From: Acidobacteriaceae bacterium
GTDB lineage: Bacteria; Acidobacteriota; Terriglobia; Terriglobales; Acidobacteriaceae
DNA: 64,000 nucleotides
Direction: 5' to 3'
Assembly: GCA_003138515.1 (NCBI GenBank)
Contig: PLGG01000074.1
Coordinates: 1 to 64,000 of the forward strand
Position 1 is the first letter of the stretch, and every line of letters begins with the position of its first letter. Below are positions 16,253 to 22,841 of the stretch, piece after piece. Below the pieces are notes generated by a model. It was not told the origin of the DNA. It ran no database searches and saw only the letters and a program-made list of their open reading frames with translations. The position numbers were made by a program, and so were the translations under genes.

Positions 16253-17506
16253 TCAGGGGCGGGCATTCGCCGTTGCGGGAGGGGGAGTGCGGAGGGCGAA
16301 GTCAGCGTCCGCGGAACTGCGGTTCATGACAGGATGCTGATGCATGCCCTGCGACGAGACGCTTTTCGAGACCTGCTGCGCGACCGAATCATAGACCTGG
16401 CTCAATGGCGTCTGGCCCTTGCCCGTCTTGAGAGCCTGGAGCAGGAAATAGGTGAAGTAGCCGTGGTGGAGCTGGCTGCTTTCAAGCGACTCTTCGTTGA
16501 CTTCGCTGGCGGCCATGACGATGCGGCCCGTTCCGTCCGACATGTGCGTAAGCATGGCGCCCGAGGGAGCGGTGTTGGCAAGCGGGGCGGAGGGTTGCGA
16601 TCCGTTGTCGCCGGCCGCGCCACCGCTGTAGCAGGTGTCGAGAAAGACGGCGGTGCGGAGGGCCTTCATGCGCGTGGAGACGGCGTCGGCCAACTCGACC
16701 ATGGGATACGCCGTGGCGTAGAGGGCATCCTCGTCGAGTTTTCCGCCGGAGTAGACTTCGGTGTCGTAGGTGATGAGGTAGTTTGCGCCGCCTGCCGTGT
16801 CTGTAGTGCGCGGCGTGCCATGCGTGGCGACGTAAATCACGACGAGATCGTTAGGCTCGGCGTGGCGCGCAATCCAGTTGAGCTGTTCCTTGATGTTCTT
16901 TGTAGTGGCCTGATCATCGGTGAGGACGTGGACGTTGTCCACGGGAAAACCGCCGATAGAGGGGTCTTTGAGCGCAGTGGCGAAGGCGGTGGCATCGGTG
17001 CCAGTGTAGTTGAGCTGAGGAATGGTCGTGTCAGTAAAGTGACCGATACCGATGACGAGCGCCCACTTCTGTTGCACTGGACCGGGCTTGACCGGCGGGG
17101 CGGCAGGTACGGGAGTCTCAGTGCCCTCAGCCTCGATGCCGCGCGAGGCCGGAGTTGAAAGGCTCAGTGGATTCAGATCCTGATCGAGCGCCTCAGAGCC
17201 GTTGAAGCGCGCCTTGTCCATAGCGTAGTTGGCGAGAGCGGCGTGGCCAAGGCGCTTTTCGACGAGACTGCGGTAGTACCACGCATCGCCCAGTTCGGGG
17301 CATTCAGCGAGGGCGGATTTGAGCAACTGCAGCGCGTTTTCAAACGCGTCATTTCCGCTTTGCGGTGTGATTTGCTCGAGCGCCTGAACGATGAGGTCCT
17401 GGCCTGCGCCGCAGCGAATTCCCTGAGCGCGCGCGCAGGGAGATGCGACGAGCGTTGCGGCCAGCAACGGCAGAACGGCGAGTCCGAATCGATTGCGAGA
17501 GTTCAT
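16253..17506 (-). CDS. Secreted caspase family (C14) peptidase with helical N-terminal domain
   Basis: 417-residue caspase-like cysteine peptidase. A signal peptide (1 to ~28, ending ASPCARAQ) is followed by a TPR-like helical segment (~35-105) and a Pro-rich linker. The C14 domain starts at WALVIGIGHF (148-157) with catalytic His229 in VVIYVATHGTPR and Cys292 in VFLDTCYSGGA; both are intact. Bacterial caspase-like proteins of this type cleave after Arg/Lys or Asp; specificity is not predicted here. Its ATG overlaps the TGA of the upstream gene (ATGA at 17503-17506), so the two are translationally coupled. Export means the target would be periplasmic or extracellular. Confidence 0.88.
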   Translation of the reverse strand: MNSRNRFGLAVLPLLAATLVASPCARAQGIRCGAGQDLIVQALEQITPQSGNDAFENALQLLKSALAECPELGDAWYYRSLVEKRLGHAALANYAMDKARFNGSEALDQDLNPLSLSTPASRGIEAEGTETPVPAAPPVKPGPVQQKWALVIGIGHFTDTTIPQLNYTGTDATAFATALKDPSIGGFPVDNVHVLTDDQATTKNIKEQLNWIARHAEPNDLVVIYVATHGTPRTTDTAGGANYLITYDTEVYSGGKLDEDALYATAYPMVELADAVSTRMKALRTAVFLDTCYSGGAAGDNGSQPSAPLANTAPSGAMLTHMSDGTGRIVMAASEVNEESLESSQLHHGYFTYFLLQALKTGKGQTPLSQVYDSVAQQVSKSVSSQGMHQHPVMNRSSADADFALRTPPPATANARP

Positions 17507-18987
17507 TTTTCGGCTACGTGCCCTGTGGATGACCCCGGCTTCTTTGCGGACCGAGCTTTCATTGCGTCCAGGACATGGGCGCTTACACCGCTACTGACGA
17601 GAGTTTGCTGACCGGCAGGGCTGAGGTCGAAATCGATGGCATTCGCACCGTTAATCGCCTGGATGATGGTTCCCTCTTCCATGCCCGATTTCACCATGGT
17701 GATGATCTGAGTGTTGTTCAGCCCCTTGTGCACAACAGCGTGCGGCTTCTTTGCGGCCTGTACCTTCATCTCGGCGAGGAGATGCACGCTGACACCCCCC
17801 GTGGTGAGGGCTTTCTGACCGGCCGGCGTGAGATCGAAGTTGACCGCGCTGGCCCCGCGAATGGCCTGAATGACGGTGGCGTCGTCCATGCCGGACTTGA
17901 CCATGGCGATCACCTGATCGTTGGTCAAGCCCTGGGCCTTGGAATTCGCGGCGTCGACAGACTGGTTCCTGGCTTTGTCCGCGTCACGCTGTTTTTGCAA
18001 ATCGAGTTCTTTGTAGTGCGCGATCGCGGTCTCGATGCGCTTCTGCGGCTCGACGAAATACTTCTCGGTGGGCTTGGAATCAATTGCCTTGCCGTAGTTG
18101 ATGGCGGCCTGGTCGAGGTACTTCATGGCTATCTTCTCATCGTCGGCCTCATAGGCAAGCGCCTCGTAGGCCACGCCAATGTCGTAGAGCCGGTAGGCGT
18201 CTTCGTCCGGTTTAGGAAACGCTGGGGCGGTCTCAAAGGTTTCGAGGGCGCGCTCCCAAAGCCCTGTCAGGGCGTCCTTATCGCCTTCCTCAAGCGGGCC
18301 GTCCTTGCGCGCAAGCAGCACGTCGATGGCTTCATCGGAGTTGACGATATGCTCGGCAATCTGCTGCACGGCGTCGATAATGAGCTTCGAGCGCACCTCG
18401 GAAGTGCCGAGGGCAGTGTTGTCCGCGGTTTTCTTGCCTTTTAGCTTGTTCCAGGTGCCGCTCAGCGACCCCTTGACGCCGTTAGAGGTCGAGATCCCCG
18501 AGCTATCGAATTGCTCGTCGTACTTTGCGCTGACGTTATCGGAAGCCAGGATCCTGCCATCGGCCGTTTTCGCCTGAAACGAAACGATCAGGTCGCCGGA
18601 AACGCGCTGAAATGTCTGGGTTGTCGGAGCTCCCCTGACAAGGGCCACCGCTGGCGCCGTGGTGTCAGTCTCATGCGGAGGTTCGTACTGGGTTATGCGG
18701 CAGGCGATGGCGGTGTTGGGATTGTCATCCTCACGCAGATCGGGATCGTCTTTGAGCAACTCGGTTTCGAGCACCGCCTGAAAGTCGTATGGCAGGGCGC
18801 CGTCTTCGCTGTCCGCGGTCACCGTAACCTTGATCGAATTACCCGGCAGACGCACTACTGCGGGCAATTTGCGGTGAAGCGTGACTTTTTCCTTATTGGC
18901 GCCAAAACCTTGCGCGCCGGCGGGAGCAGTCACAAGCGCTGCGACACTCAAAGTTGCCAATACGACGAATTTTACCGAACGGCTCAT
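17503..18987 (-). CDS. Exported protein with duplicated C-terminal module, coupled to caspase gene
   Basis: 494-residue exported protein. Start ATG 18987 (MSRSVKF) is chosen because GGGGGATGAG precedes it; the longer frame to 19068 lacks conserved sequence. Signal peptide ends near TAPAGAQG. The middle has beta-rich (LPAVVRLPGNSIKVTV) and helical TPR-like parts (LYDIGVAYEALAYEA, YLDQAAINYGKAID). Residues ~353-415 and ~422-480 are two copies of one module: QVIAMVKSGMDDATVIQAI / QIITMVKSGMEEGTIIQAI, each followed by FDLTPAGQKAL / FDLSPAGQQTL and a GVS-x-H-L helix. Similar modules occur singly in many bacterial exported proteins, without known function. Stop overlaps the caspase start, suggesting the two act together. 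Confidence 0.78.
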   Translation of the reverse strand: MSRSVKFVVLATLSVAALVTAPAGAQGFGANKEKVTLHRKLPAVVRLPGNSIKVTVTADSEDGALPYDFQAVLETELLKDDPDLREDDNPNTAIACRITQYEPPHETDTTAPAVALVRGAPTTQTFQRVSGDLIVSFQAKTADGRILASDNVSAKYDEQFDSSGISTSNGVKGSLSGTWNKLKGKKTADNTALGTSEVRSKLIIDAVQQIAEHIVNSDEAIDVLLARKDGPLEEGDKDALTGLWERALETFETAPAFPKPDEDAYRLYDIGVAYEALAYEADDEKIAMKYLDQAAINYGKAIDSKPTEKYFVEPQKRIETAIAHYKELDLQKQRDADKARNQSVDAANSKAQGLTNDQVIAMVKSGMDDATVIQAIRGASAVNFDLTPAGQKALTTGGVSVHLLAEMKVQAAKKPHAVVHKGLNNTQIITMVKSGMEEGTIIQAINGANAIDFDLSPAGQQTLVSSGVSAHVLDAMKARSAKKPGSSTGHVAEK

Positions 18988-19087
18988 CTCATCCCCCATC
19001 GATTTACCGTTTGTTGACGCCGCCAGATGCCAGGGGCGGCGCCATTCACAACCAGCATACCCGCACACGCGGGCAACCGTCAGCTCT

Positions 19088-20311
19088 CTAATCCGCTTTC
19101 GCCTTGGGAGTTTCCTCTTTGGGCTTGGGAGCTTCTCCGTTGGTCGTGGGAGTCTCCTGTTTGGACTTGGTCGTGCTCTTTTTGGTGCTTGATGATGAGC
19201 AGGATGATGAAGTCGAGGAGCTGGAAGCAGCGGGCCTGCTCAAGTTTGTGTCGGAAGGCTGAACTGTGATGTGCATTGAGGCGTAAGTAATCCCGGGAAC
19301 CGAATTCTCCGCGCGCTCCGGTAGCGGCAGATTTGGATCGGCGTCTTTGGCGACAAGGTAGCCCTGGATCAAGTCGAGATTCGGCAGAGCTTTGGCCAGC
19401 TCGTCGACATGCCTCTGCGGAACCATTAGATAGTCGCCCGATTTGAGGCCGATATAGGCGGGATCACGATCGGGATCGTCCAGCGCCTGTTGCGTGGCTA
19501 CGGCGTGAGTGAGGTTGCCGGCCATGATGAATCGTGTGCGGTCTTCCCAGTAGCTGAGCGCCTCAGTAAACGTGCTGAGAGCGGGCACGCTGATGGCCGG
19601 AAGACTGACGATGGGAGCCGCGATTTTCGCGCCCTGAATCATAATGTTGAGGGCCTTAACGAACATCGATTGGGCTGCGGCTCTGGAGATGTTCACAGCC
19701 AGCTTGCCGGTTCCCTCCGTGAGCAGGATCTTGCTGGTGCCTTGCATGGCCTGGGGCGAGCGAAAGCCGAGCGCGTCGAGAGAGACCTTGCCCGCATTGT
19801 TGGGCGAAACCGACGCGATGGCCGACCAGGCAAGAGGCGTGAGGATATTGACGAAGGGGTGAACCTGCGTGGTGTCGACTCGCAGTTGCGAAACTTTCAG
19901 ATTGCTTTCGCCGGCTCCGGGACGAAACTGGGCGAGGGCAATGCTGACACCGACGTCACCGTCGTGATCGAGCAACTCTTCCTTCCGAATATCTGAGGCG
20001 TAGCGAAGGCGCTTGTTGTCGGTGTCATAGTGCAGGTATTGGGTTTGGGCCGCAGGATCGGGAAGCTGGTCTGTGGGACCGCGTGAAGCAGCTTTGCTGC
20101 CGTAGTTCCCGCTGTAGGGGTTGACCGAGTCGTAGAACCCGGTCCAGAAACTGTAGGAATCGTGAGGCAAGTCTTCCGCCGGGACTGGACGAGGAGGAGG
20201 AGGAGGAGGAGGAGGCGTGGAAGCCTGTGCGGCGGCGAGCTGGGGAAGCAGCGCCGTGATCATGCCGAGCGCGGAAGCGTCGGCGAGGAAAAGGCGTCGA
20301 GAAACTGGCAT
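19088..20311 (-). CDS. Exported protein with Tat-like signal, Pro tract and Ser/Lys-rich tail
   Basis: 407-residue protein of unknown function. ATG 20311 has an excellent GGAGGGTG ribosome site. The N-terminus SRRLFLADASAL (residues 4-15) followed by a hydrophobic stretch fits a twin-arginine signal. An eight-proline tract follows cleavage. The central part has no recognised domain (SYSFWTGFYDSVNPYSGNYG, VGVSIALAQFRPGAGE, ALSYWEDRTRFIMAGN, GLKSGDYLMVPQRHVDEL). The tail is low complexity: a Ser run then Lys/Thr/Glu/Pro repeats (PKPKEETPKAK). It lies between the two caspase-like genes in the same direction, so a linked role with them is inferred. Confidence 0.75.
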   Translation of the reverse strand: MPVSRRLFLADASALGMITALLPQLAAAQASTPPPPPPPPRPVPAEDLPHDSYSFWTGFYDSVNPYSGNYGSKAASRGPTDQLPDPAAQTQYLHYDTDNKRLRYASDIRKEELLDHDGDVGVSIALAQFRPGAGESNLKVSQLRVDTTQVHPFVNILTPLAWSAIASVSPNNAGKVSLDALGFRSPQAMQGTSKILLTEGTGKLAVNISRAAAQSMFVKALNIMIQGAKIAAPIVSLPAISVPALSTFTEALSYWEDRTRFIMAGNLTHAVATQQALDDPDRDPAYIGLKSGDYLMVPQRHVDELAKALPNLDLIQGYLVAKDADPNLPLPERAENSVPGITYASMHITVQPSDTNLSRPAASSSSTSSSCSSSSTKKSTTKSKQETPTTNGEAPKPKEETPKAKAD

Positions 20312-20432
20312 CGGTTCACCCTCCATATGCCTTGCCGGAGTGATTCAATGAGCTGCCGGCTGCTCAATTGGTGTATGGGTCCGATTCATGAAACCGGTCG
20401 ATGATACAAGAAGCCTGATTGATGCATGAAGC

Positions 20433-22841
20433 CTAATTGGTCGTGCTTTGAGGGGCACTGTGAACAGTCATGAGCCCAATGCTCCAATTGGTGGGGACCT
20501 CGCCGGAAAATCCGCGGGTTCCTCCGCTGGTTTGACTCAAGAGTTTTTCCAGGGGCGACGCGACTCCGCGCGTGCCGCGCGAGGCGACGCCTTCAAAGTT
20601 CAGTACGTATGGGTCGGCGAGCGGCTGCTCGGTGCTCAGCATGATGAGCGTATCCACGCCATAAGGCGGACCGATGCGCAGGACCGGCGCGCCGGGAAGA
20701 ACGAACTGGCGGCCATTTTCAGAATCGTTAGGAAACTGATTCTCAGAGTAGTCGCGCGGGTAAAGAACGGTGCCCTGACCGTAGCAATCGATGTCGAGGA
20801 CATAGACCCAGCGATGATCGATGATGCGGTCGTTGGAGGCGAGGGCCATTTTGAGCTGATCGCCCTGGTGCGTGGTCTGATTTGCCGGAAGCGGCGAGGT
20901 GGCGTTGGAGGGAAGCAGGGTCAGCGAATAATATTCGTCGCTGGACGCGTCCGCAGGGCTGTTAGCCAGTTCGAGCCAGCCGTGGACCTTGGCGAGCAGG
21001 GACGAGTAGTGGTTCAGTTTGTCGCCGGCGGCATCGATGGCGGAAGCGCTGCCGACGGGCACCCAGTCAGTGCGCACCGGGTACTGCGAGGAAGCCGAAC
21101 AGCCGGGGCTGTGCGGGGGCGCATTGGGCGAGGGCGGTCCAGCCGCAAGTTCGCTCTTGTGATACCAGGCGTAAGCCGGACCATTGGCGGTGAGGACGCC
21201 GGTGAGCGCGTAGTTCGCGACAGACATATTGCCGGCGACTTGAACGGCGCTGTCGGCGCCGGCCGCCTTGACCTTTGCGGCCAGCTCCTGCGAGGGCGGA
21301 AGATTGACCCACAACTTAGCGCCGGCGGGAAGGTTCTTCTTGACTGCATCGGCGGTCAGCGGCGCACCGAGGTTGGTGGAAGTGGGCGAACCGGCCTGCT
21401 GCAGCGTCCAATTCGTGCCGTCCCAACTGAGGACGTGGGTCCACGGCTGCTCGGCAGGATCGGAGACCAAAGCAGCGCCAGATGATTGAAGCTGCGCGGC
21501 GGCTGCGTCGATCTGGTCCTCGGAGAGATTGGATGGCCAAAGCCAGACGAGCAAAGGAGGATTATCGGCGGGGATCCATTTGCTTAACTCGAAAAGGTCT
21601 CCGGGAGAAACTTTCGCTCCCGCCGGACTGACGATTTCGGCAGAGGAGCGTGCGAGGCCGTCGAGGCTGGTGATGCGAAGGAGAACTTTTGGGCCAGTGC
21701 TGTTGGCGATAGCGGCGGTGAATTCGCTGCCGACACCGAGGCCGGAGGCGCGGCCGATGTCGAGTGAGACAGAGCCGTCATCGTTTGTGCCGAGCGCAGC
21801 AGCGCGCACTTTGTCAGACTTGGCGGCGGCGCCACCGAAGAGCGGTTGTTCGCGCCGCGCGGCCGTAGCATCGAGGTCAGGCTCCTGATCGGGCACGTTG
21901 CTGCCCTCGAGGACGGCCTTTACACGCTCGTAAACGACGGAAGCAGGCGTGTCGGCAGGCAATGCCTGCAGAGCTTGAAGTAGCGCGGCAGTAAAAGCGC
22001 CGTGCGGCTCAGTACCCGCCGGCATTTCCTTGGCGGTCTGATCCTGTTGCGCCGCGGAAAAGACCAGCGCGGAATTGTCGGTGCGTTGGGTTGGCGCAGG
22101 GCGCGGTTGGCCGTTGGGCAGCGCGTCTGGAACTTCATTGATGTCGCGGGGATCAAAGGCCAGAGCGCGTTCGCGGTAAACCGGGCCGATGCCGCGGCTG
22201 ATACCGCCGGAGTGACAACTGTCGAAGATGACGGTGAGATGGACGCCCTTGTCGAGAGCGGCATTGAAGATGCGCGTCATCTCGCGGTCGCGGACGTCGT
22301 AGCCGCCCTTGTAGGCGTCAGAGGGAACCATTGTGCTGTCGGCGTGGACATACTGACCGCCGACCAGCACGGTGAGCTTGTTGCCCTTGCTGTTGACTCG
22401 AAGCGAGCCATGGCTGGCGTCGTAAAAGACAACGGTGTCGCCCTTTTGCGGGACGTCCACTAGATATTTCTGCATGGCGGCAAGAATGCCATCGTGCGTG
22501 GTCTGATCGGCTGGAAGGAGGACCACACCCGGACTCGAATGGGGCGGCGCCGGGTTGGTGAGCAGAACAACGTTGGTGGCCGGGAAGCCGAACTTCGGAC
22601 TGGTGAGGAGGTCGGCCATGGCTTGCGCGTCGTTGACGGACCCGTCGAGATTCTCGAAGGTCCCCAACTCGCAGCGGCCATAGATGCAGCCGGCCGGATG
22701 ATCCGGCGTGGTTCCCGCGGGTTGATATGTATTGATGCCGATGAGGAGGGCTCGTTCGGTTTGGGCAACAGCGGACGACCCAGCGAGCGAGCCAGCGAAC
22801 ACGAAGGCCAAGGCGGAAAATCCGGCGACGTACGCTCTCAT
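20433..22841 (-). CDS. Large secreted caspase family (C14) peptidase
   Basis: 802-residue caspase-like protein. ATG 22841 (MRAYVAGF) follows GGGAG; signal peptide ends near SSAVAQT. The C14 domain runs from ALLIGINTYQ (31-40) to ~260, with catalytic His144 (VFYDASHGSLR) and Cys209 (VIFDSCHSGG) both present. After ~400 comes a beta-rich region (DLFELSKWIPADNPPLLVWL; WVYVLDIDCYGQGTVLYPR; VDTLIMLSTEQPL) similar to the DUF4384-like modules that often follow bacterial caspase domains, so a two-part protease-sensor design is likely. It is first in the minus-strand series 22841-16253, behind a ~1.2-kb gene-poor stretch that presumably carries its promoter. Confidence 0.87.
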   Translation of the reverse strand: MRAYVAGFSALAFVFAGSLAGSSAVAQTERALLIGINTYQPAGTTPDHPAGCIYGRCELGTFENLDGSVNDAQAMADLLTSPKFGFPATNVVLLTNPAPPHSSPGVVLLPADQTTHDGILAAMQKYLVDVPQKGDTVVFYDASHGSLRVNSKGNKLTVLVGGQYVHADSTMVPSDAYKGGYDVRDREMTRIFNAALDKGVHLTVIFDSCHSGGISRGIGPVYRERALAFDPRDINEVPDALPNGQPRPAPTQRTDNSALVFSAAQQDQTAKEMPAGTEPHGAFTAALLQALQALPADTPASVVYERVKAVLEGSNVPDQEPDLDATAARREQPLFGGAAAKSDKVRAAALGTNDDGSVSLDIGRASGLGVGSEFTAAIANSTGPKVLLRITSLDGLARSSAEIVSPAGAKVSPGDLFELSKWIPADNPPLLVWLWPSNLSEDQIDAAAAQLQSSGAALVSDPAEQPWTHVLSWDGTNWTLQQAGSPTSTNLGAPLTADAVKKNLPAGAKLWVNLPPSQELAAKVKAAGADSAVQVAGNMSVANYALTGVLTANGPAYAWYHKSELAAGPPSPNAPPHSPGCSASSQYPVRTDWVPVGSASAIDAAGDKLNHYSSLLAKVHGWLELANSPADASSDEYYSLTLLPSNATSPLPANQTTHQGDQLKMALASNDRIIDHRWVYVLDIDCYGQGTVLYPRDYSENQFPNDSENGRQFVLPGAPVLRIGPPYGVDTLIMLSTEQPLADPYVLNFEGVASRGTRGVASPLEKLLSQTSGGTRGFSGEVPTNWSIGLMTVHSAPQSTTN

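What the first reader, a model, noticed from the sequence alone, without database searches (positions are those of the whole stretch)
16253..22841. Four-gene secreted caspase cluster: possible undescribed proteolytic system
Two C14 peptidases with intact dyads (His229/Cys292; His144/Cys209) sit with two other exported proteins, all on one strand. One partner is translationally coupled to a caspase gene. One caspase has a TPR-like front part, the other a large beta-rich DUF4384-like tail. The setting resembles a protease with sensor and substrate partners outside the cytoplasm, and I know of no described system of this composition.
Basis: partly seen in the sequence, partly recalled or inferred. 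Interest (0 to 1): 0.62.

Follow-up and report, generated by a model that had tools for sequence, protein, structure and literature searches.

The report
Exported caspase cassette in soil bacteria
Some soil bacteria of the phylum Acidobacteriota carry a recurring set of caspase-type proteases predicted to be exported, together with two dedicated partner proteins of unknown function, which suggests a caspase pathway working outside the bacterial cytoplasm rather than inside it.

Summary
Four genes on one strand encode two C14 peptidases with intact His/Cys dyads (A, D) and two exported-looking proteins that match no Pfam or NCBIfam family over its cut-off (B, C). The neighbourhood is conserved: A-B-C-D in the same order occurs in the window and four other genomes of its genus; smaller combinations occur more widely. 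C is followed by D in 25 of 25 fetched loci of the order, 17 with a 4-base overlap. B is the hub: 23 of 33 B genes have a C14 hit within 10 kb (0.34 expected) and 3 more a CHAT hit; the 7 misses lie on contigs of 3.6-12.6 kb. Exported-looking TPR-CHAT proteases belong to the set too. A, C and D have Sec-like leaders, B a Tat-like one. C's model has a PelC/CsgG-type envelope domain; B's is weakly C2-like. Best reading: an extracytoplasmic clan-CD protease module with C as scaffold or sensor of D and B as shared client. These roles are inferred, not shown. New variant of bacterial caspase/CHAT systems.

The parts
20433..22841 (-). Gene A: Sec-like leader, caspase (C14) domain, long tail with a DUF4384-like stretch (about 802 aa from the ATG at 22841; the ORF is open to 22910)
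22410..22412 (-). A catalytic His144 codon
22215..22217 (-). A catalytic Cys209 codon (motif DSCHSG)
19088..20311 (-). Gene B: Tat-like leader (VSRRLFL), family without Pfam or NCBIfam match over cut-off and without PHROG match, model weakly C2-like, Ser/Lys-rich C-terminal tail
17503..18987 (-). Gene C: Sec-like leader, PelC/CsgG-type domain, TPR-like helices, two four-helix repeats (predicted model)
18340..18861 (-). C, PelC/CsgG/LptE-type domain (residues 43-216 of the model)
   Evidence: Z 12.5, rmsd 2.6, 117 aligned to PelC 5t11
17944..18273 (-). C, TPR-like helical hairpins (residues 239-348 of the model)
17545..17931 (-). C, two copies of a four-helix repeat that also occurs without the rest of C in many other proteins of the phylum
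16253..17506 (-). Gene D: Sec-like leader, front part with two Cys (32, 69) that are invariant in 13 of 13 aligned homologues, caspase (C14) domain
16820..16822 (-). D catalytic His229 codon
16631..16633 (-). D catalytic Cys292 codon (motif DTCYSG)
17503..17506 (-). ATGA overlap of C stop and D start (translational coupling)

Best explanation
This is a modular extracytoplasmic clan-CD protease system. D and A are Sec-exported caspases of the Arg/Lys-cutting kind (metacaspase/orthocaspase). C, made next to D in every locus of the order that I saw, is an envelope-side scaffold or sensor: its PelC/CsgG-type domain would sit or oligomerise at the inner face of the outer membrane, and its TPR-like and helical repeats would recruit and activate D. 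B is exported already folded by Tat and is the shared client of whichever clan-CD protease (A, D or TPR-CHAT) stands beside it: most likely a substrate-effector that is cut and thereby switched on or released, perhaps acting on membrane through its C2-like sandwich. Shown by computation: conservation of the genes, co-occurrence, intact catalytic residues, purifying selection. Predicted: export, folds. Inferred: P1 specificity, activation of D by C, cleavage of B, and any outcome such as lysis or envelope defence.
For: A-B-C-D in the same order and strand in the window, L059, L060, L061, L064, and with B and C in broken frames in L115. B beside clan-CD peptidases beyond chance: 23 of 33 with C14 within 10 kb, 3 more with CHAT only, expected 0.34 (C14) and 0.74 (either). 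The association recurs over deep branches of the B tree with different partners: A, C-D, TPR-CHAT, a caspase-TPR protein. Dyad residues: 22 of 23 A (the other, L063, is a fragment without the domain) and 25 of 25 core D with the domain on the contig; 15 of 15 CHAT by alignment. C directly followed by D in 25 of 25 fetched loci of the order, 17 of 25 overlapping by 4 bases with mechanically chosen starts. Sec-like leaders on A, C, D and, by eye, on most TPR-CHAT; RR motif before a hydrophobic stretch on B homologues that have their N-terminus, except L116. Two Cys in the front of D invariant in 13 of 13, which would suit a disulphide outside the cytoplasm. C model: PelC Z 12.5. An acidic residue two before the Cys in A and D; a review says that all characterised C14 members other than animal caspases prefer Arg/Lys at P1 (PMC5756287, passages). 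In 21 of 36 B ORFs whose C-terminal motif was found (41 ORFs in all), the tail after it holds five or more Lys/Arg, possible cleavage sites (my count of the rows; the tail of L071 there includes doubtful sequence).
Against: No evidence that any protease cuts or binds B. The Lys-rich tail of B is missing in several homologues that sit beside a caspase (L066 second copy, L072, L074, L076). Of 14 genomes with full-length A, 6 have the A locus without B nearby; 13 of 25 C-D loci have no B ORF by my profile, some of them on short contigs, so B is not required. In L077, L078 and L079 the near neighbour is an M48 metallopeptidase (A also near in L078), and in L116 a trypsin-type one, so the partner need not be clan CD. 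The C2-like match of B is weak (best Z 6.7; model pLDDT 69; no Foldseek hit at E <= 0.001). Four D-profile hits lack the DxCxxG motif (L072, L076, L083, L109). The four-gene order is confined to one clade of 12 rows, nearly all of one genus.
Confidence: 0.4

Rival explanations
1. B is not a substrate but an inhibitor, chaperone or guard that keeps exported proteases silent until needed, as periplasmic protease inhibitors do.
For: B has a Tat-like leader unlike the Sec-like ones of its proteases, as would suit a folded inhibitor waiting outside; it sits beside unrelated protease types; its model is a beta-sandwich.
Against: One inhibitor fold for C14, CHAT, M48 and trypsin-type neighbours is less parsimonious; A and C-D also occur without B; no inhibitory loop is evident in the alignment (by eye).
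Confidence: 0.2
2. An envelope quality-control or protein-maturation system: the proteases trim or clear exported proteins, and C and M48-TPR partners dock them to outer-membrane machinery. No cell death or defence.
For: C's domain resembles PelC, CsgG, LptE, TraT and the TolB N-domain; M48 genes neighbour B in L072, L076, L077, L078, L079 and L109, one of them with TPR hits, recalling the outer-membrane protease BepA (recalled).
Against: Patchy distribution (B in 30 of 397 genomes of the order) is unlike housekeeping; the leaderless B relative L116 sits with an alpha/beta hydrolase and a TPR-S/trypsin-like protein, which looks like a conflict-type set.
Confidence: 0.25
3. The genes merely cluster (a protease island of horizontally moving genes) without acting on one another.
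For: Combinations vary from genome to genome; A, B and C-D each occur without the others.
Against: Fixed order and strand, short gaps (13-173 bases between A and B in 11 of 14 A-then-B loci), ATGA coupling of C to D, and recurrence of B beside clan-CD proteases on deep branches.
Confidence: 0.1

Closest known systems
Prokaryotic metacaspases / orthocaspases (MEROPS C14; PF00656)
   Same: A and D have the domain, the His/Cys dyad and the D-x-C motif; the nearest solved chain to D by sequence is Metacaspase-1 4f6o (E 0.0053; from yeast, recalled). A 2012 survey noted N-terminal helices that may be signal peptides and proposed roles at the cell surface (PMC3501461, passages).
   Different: Two exported-looking caspases in one operon-like set with B and C. 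The 2012 survey found operons with more than one metacaspase in only four bacterial groups, Acidobacteria not among them (PMC3501461, passage).
EACC1-caspase two-gene system and VMAP ternary systems (PMC7159879)
   Same: A caspase or trypsin-type peptidase with a constant partner gene; VMAP caspases always with an alpha/beta-hydrolase neighbour (passages). Here a DLH-type hydrolase lies between B and CHAT in L066, and its homologue likewise in L065.
   Different: EACC1 is a domain around a single TM helix (passage); B and C are larger, with cleavable-looking leaders. D and A miss the NF047832 cut-off (105.5 and 29.0 against 140 bits).
Craspase (TPR-CHAT Csx29 and its substrate) and gasdermin-caspase pairs
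   Same: Logic: a clan-CD protease beside a dedicated partner that could be its substrate; TPR-CHAT enzymes occur in this cassette too.
   Different: Those act in the cytoplasm (recalled); here leaders predict export. Cas7-11 was not searched for; B has no PDB sequence relative worth the name (best E 0.16) and no Pfam match.
PelC / CsgG / LptE / TraT envelope domain
   Same: Fold of the C model, residues 43-216 (PelC Z 12.5, rmsd 2.6, 117 aligned).
   Different: C adds TPR-like helices and two four-helix repeats, and is paired with a caspase.

Membership tests
Peptidase C14 (metacaspase/orthocaspase) | PF00656 match over the curated cut-off | tested here: met
   D 78.3, A 69.1 bits against 21.4
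Peptidase C14 (metacaspase/orthocaspase) | Catalytic His and Cys | tested here: met
   Both in the window; 22 of 23 A (one fragment) and 25 of 32 D-profile hits as core D, plus L080 and L086; L096 is a cut fragment, and L072, L076, L083, L109 lack the Cys motif
Peptidase C14 (metacaspase/orthocaspase) | Cleavage after Arg/Lys | not testable with these tools
   Only the acidic residue two before the Cys was seen
EACC1-associated caspase (NF047832) | Score over the NCBIfam cut-off of 140 bits | tested here: not met
   D 105.5, A 29.0
EACC1-associated caspase (NF047832) | Upstream EACC1 protein with one TM helix | tested here: inconclusive
   B and C match no NCBIfam family over cut-off; no EACC1 model was tried directly
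Gasdermin-caspase system | Gasdermin-fold partner | tested here: inconclusive
   No Pfam match for B over cut-off; fold search gave weak C2-like rows
Craspase | Cas7-11 (gRAMP) with TPR-CHAT | not tested
   TPR-CHAT present in some loci; Cas7-11 not searched for
DUF4384 (PF14326) | Gathering score 27 bits | tested here: not met
   A 24.3 bits, E 3.4e-05
PelC/CsgG-type envelope domain (protein C) | Fold | tested here: met
   On a predicted model: PelC Z 12.5, TraT 11.1-11.7, LptE rows 8.7-10.6, CsgG rows 8.9-10.1; Foldseek prob 1.00, best E 2.5e-4
PelC/CsgG-type envelope domain (protein C) | Oligomeric ring at the outer membrane | not testable with these tools
   none
C2 domain (protein B) | Fold | tested here: inconclusive
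   Rows listed are mostly C2-bearing proteins (partly recalled) but best Z is 6.7 and model pLDDT 69

The most novel reading that the evidence does not exclude
Acidobacteriota run a caspase cascade in the cell envelope: an envelope sensor ring (C) fires an initiator caspase (D), which together with a second caspase (A) and an exported TPR-CHAT protease converges on one Tat-delivered effector (B) that attacks membranes, giving an extracytoplasmic counterpart of pyroptosis or a weapon against neighbouring cells.
Probability: 0.2. Interest if true: 0.88.

Novelty: new variant of a known kind. Interest (0 to 1): 0.62.

Why it matters
The bacterial caspase and CHAT systems whose partners are known act inside the cell (recalled). 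A conserved set of exported-looking caspases with two dedicated partner families, one of them the common neighbour of C14, CHAT, M48 and trypsin-type peptidases, gives a concrete route to the open question of what exported bacterial caspases do and what they cut. B is a defined, testable candidate substrate.

Tried and rejected
Chance clustering: rejected. A gene-call artefact: rejected by conserved frames and dN/dS 0.05-0.18. Phage origin of B: no relative confirmed in viral contigs (close relatives only), no PHROG match for B, C or the L116 relative, no plasmid match for the L116 relative. Known defence system by PADLOC: only the generic caspase model hit A and D; the flanking 147-aa ORF had a weak Cas6 hit, E 0.03. 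OCTIN (PMC5915273): passages read, an FGE-domain protein, not pursued. Inactive CHAT: a first motif scan suggested a missing Cys in several CHAT proteins; the alignment showed His and Cys in 15 of 15, so that idea was dropped. The Lys-rich tail of B as a strict mark of caspase pairing: dropped, it does not track the neighbours. A TPR front on D: not confirmed (1 of 13 homologues, E 0.08). The C-terminal repeat of C as evidence of C itself: dropped; most of the matches listed cover only that repeat. C-D pairing outside the order: not found; in four loci (five C-like ORFs) no caspase or CHAT was seen with my profiles. Promoters and terminators: promoter-like counts no higher than in shuffles and terminator-like counts lower, nothing concluded. 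In the fold searches, absence of gasdermins or of any other family from the lists is not taken as exclusion; the 'viral' fold library was not searched.
Full report
WHAT IS THERE. The four genes exist as described, on the - strand: A 20433-22841, B 19088-20311, C 17503-18987, D 16253-17506. A and D match PF00656 with His144/Cys209 and His229/Cys292. B and C match no Pfam or NCBIfam family over its cut-off and no PHROG. C ends and D starts in ATGA at 17503-17506. The genome holds three C14 genes, two of them here, and one CHAT gene on another contig. dN/dS is 0.05-0.18 for all four genes against L060 and L059 (NG86; YN00 failed for several pairs). The TPR-like front of D is not confirmed: 1 of 13 homologues has a TPR hit, at E 0.08; two Cys there are invariant in 13 of 13.

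CONSERVATION. A profile of B (four rows) matched 30 of 397 sampled genomes of the order, 33 places. I fetched the surroundings of all 33 and scanned them with profiles of A, B, C, D, CHAT and M48 built from these loci. All four genes in the order A-B-C-D: the window, L059, L060, L061, L064 (L061 and L064 also have TPR-CHAT after D). B-C-D without A: L026, L070, L073, L074, L075. A with B but no C-D beside them: L027, L062, L063 (A cut by the contig end), L066, L067, L068, L069; B before A in L072 and L076. B with TPR-CHAT: L081, L082, L085, and, from clustering of its cut TPR part, L065. B beside a caspase-TPR protein: L080. B with M48: L077, L078 (A also near), L079. L028 has B with D-like and A-like genes 5-8 kb away; L083 has a broken B with two caspases; L071 and L084, contigs of 4.2 and 3.6 kb, show no such neighbour. 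Outside this sample, L107 (A-B-CHAT) and L115 (A, B and C in broken frames, D, CHAT) came from named records.

IS IT CHANCE. Counting Pfam hits only, 23 of 33 B genes have a C14 hit within 10 kb and 3 more a CHAT hit; uniform placement predicts 0.34 (C14) and 0.74 (either). The seven without a hit lie on contigs of 3.6-12.6 kb. Related genomes are not independent, so the Poisson value printed is not a fair probability. In the B tree of 32 rows the A-B-C-D loci fall within one clade of 12 rows, while B with CHAT, with a caspase-TPR protein, with C-D and with M48 lies on other and deeper branches (several of those rows have long, uncertain branches).

MODULES. C: a C profile hit 174 of 397 genomes, mostly by its C-terminal repeat; 21 genomes had the core at high score, and three further places (in G357, G186 and a second one in G390) weakly (my count of its rows). 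I fetched all of these; with L115 they make 25 loci, and in 25 of 25 D follows directly, 17 with a 4-base overlap. Thirteen of the 25 have no B ORF by my profile, some of them on short contigs; L090 and L092 keep only a small B remnant; L089, L091 and L096 have A without B. Outside the order, four loci with C-like proteins had no caspase by my profiles. A: full-length in 14 of 249 sampled genomes. B lies beside or near A in 8 of these (one of them a broken copy) and was not seen in 6 (G115, G142, G252, G272 on a 4.8 kb contig, and loci of G258 and G114, which have a B elsewhere). The G258 locus is A-CHAT and the G142 locus has a second caspase beside A. So A, B, C-D and TPR-CHAT are four modules that combine.

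WIDER DISTRIBUTION. A scan of a collection of 84,980 species, with patterns that reach close relatives only, found 15 loci, all titled Acidobacteriaceae, Acidobacteria or Terracidiphilus MAGs, many with isolate names of palsa, bog, fen or peat. Across the phylum, 6 of 396 sampled genomes matched a B profile, 3 of them only by short weak matches. The most distant good match, L116, is a B-like protein without a leader, followed by an alpha/beta hydrolase and a TPR-S/trypsin-like protein; 1 of 10 genomes of its order has it. By eye the next gene begins like a TIR domain, but Pfam found only a CBS stretch in that ORF, so I claim no TIR.

EXPORT. By a hydrophobicity and motif script, A, C and D begin with Sec-like leaders in most homologues; the exceptions in the listing are mostly cut or wrongly started ORFs (A: L027, L028, L063, L068, L107; C: one L115 piece; D: L076, L094). 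B has RR before a hydrophobic stretch, as in Tat leaders, in the homologues that have their N-terminus, other than L116; L107 and several fragments lack that part. N-termini of TPR-CHAT proteins look Sec-like by eye in most of 15. This is prediction; no formal leader predictor was used. The two different routes are conserved and unexplained; a folded or cofactor-bearing B would suit Tat.

CATALYSIS. 22 of 23 A homologues keep both residues (the other is a fragment without the domain). Of 32 D-profile hits, 25 core members keep both, as do the other caspases L080 and L086; L096 is a cut fragment, and L072, L076, L083 and L109 lack the DxCxxG motif. All 15 CHAT proteins keep His and Cys. A review states that characterised C14 members other than animal caspases prefer Arg/Lys at P1 because of an acidic pocket (PMC5756287, passages); that A and D do so is inference.

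STRUCTURE. C (pLDDT 72.5, pTM 0.43): residues 43-216 match PelC (Z 12.5, rmsd 2.6, 117 aligned), also TraT, LptE, CsgG and TolB, then TPR-like helices and two four-helix repeats. B (pLDDT 69.2, pTM 0.66): the rows are mostly C2-bearing proteins, best Z 6.7, below the level at which the tool trusts a match; Foldseek gave nothing at E <= 0.001. The best PDB sequence match to a B profile has E 0.16.

MECHANISM. I favour: C holds and senses at the envelope and activates D; A is a second caspase; B is the shared client, probably a substrate-effector. What is best supported is association; cleavage of B, activation by C and the outcome are inferred. Rivals are an inhibitor or guard role of B, and an envelope quality-control system, for which C's fold and the M48 neighbours speak. 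The distant L116 set speaks for conflict.

LITERATURE. PMC7159879 (2020; passages) describes caspase and trypsin peptidases with constant partners such as EACC1, and VMAP caspases with an alpha/beta-hydrolase neighbour; PMC8195603 (2021; passages) mentions CATRA, a caspase-dependent ternary conflict system, which I could not compare: a search for it listed 8 of 12 papers and not its source. PMC3501461 (2012; passages) noted possible signal peptides and surface roles of metacaspases, and multi-metacaspase operons in four groups, Acidobacteria not among them. DUF4384 on caspase homologues is known from cyanobacteria (PMC7475262, passages). Ten searches listed no paper on this composition; the library lacks most subscription journals.

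VERDICT. It is a new variant of bacterial caspase/CHAT systems, notable for predicted export and for the B family.

Noticed in passing
L116:5200-10378: A leaderless relative of B in another family of the phylum stands in an operon-like set with an alpha/beta hydrolase and a TPR-S/trypsin-like protein; the next gene looks TIR-like by eye at its start, which Pfam did not confirm.
   Followed up: partly
window 17545-17931 and many places: The four-helix repeat at the C-terminus of C occurs without the rest of C in many proteins across the phylum; no Pfam family over its cut-off covers it in C.
   Followed up: no
L078:1666-3516, L079:4794-6647, L072:13826-15580, L076:3575-5332, L109:959-2134: M48 metallopeptidase genes neighbour B; in L078 and L079 they overlap or nearly touch B on the same strand.
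   Followed up: partly
L129:8372-8881 and L132:11406-11867: Two B-less A genes are preceded by small exported-looking proteins that look alike by eye (N-x-TPW and a WGP stretch), possibly another partner family.
   Followed up: no
L028:10559-11509: A ceramidase-like membrane protein (PF05875, just below cut-off) directly beside a B gene.
   Followed up: no
L115:10001-11054, L083:9141-10204, L090:8165-8446, L092:8421-8621: Broken or fragmentary copies of B next to intact caspases, so B seems to be lost while the proteases stay.
   Followed up: partly
L086:9131-12451 (G000:C85:53298-53996): The third caspase of the window's genome carries Sel1 repeats and has no B or C beside it.
   Followed up: no
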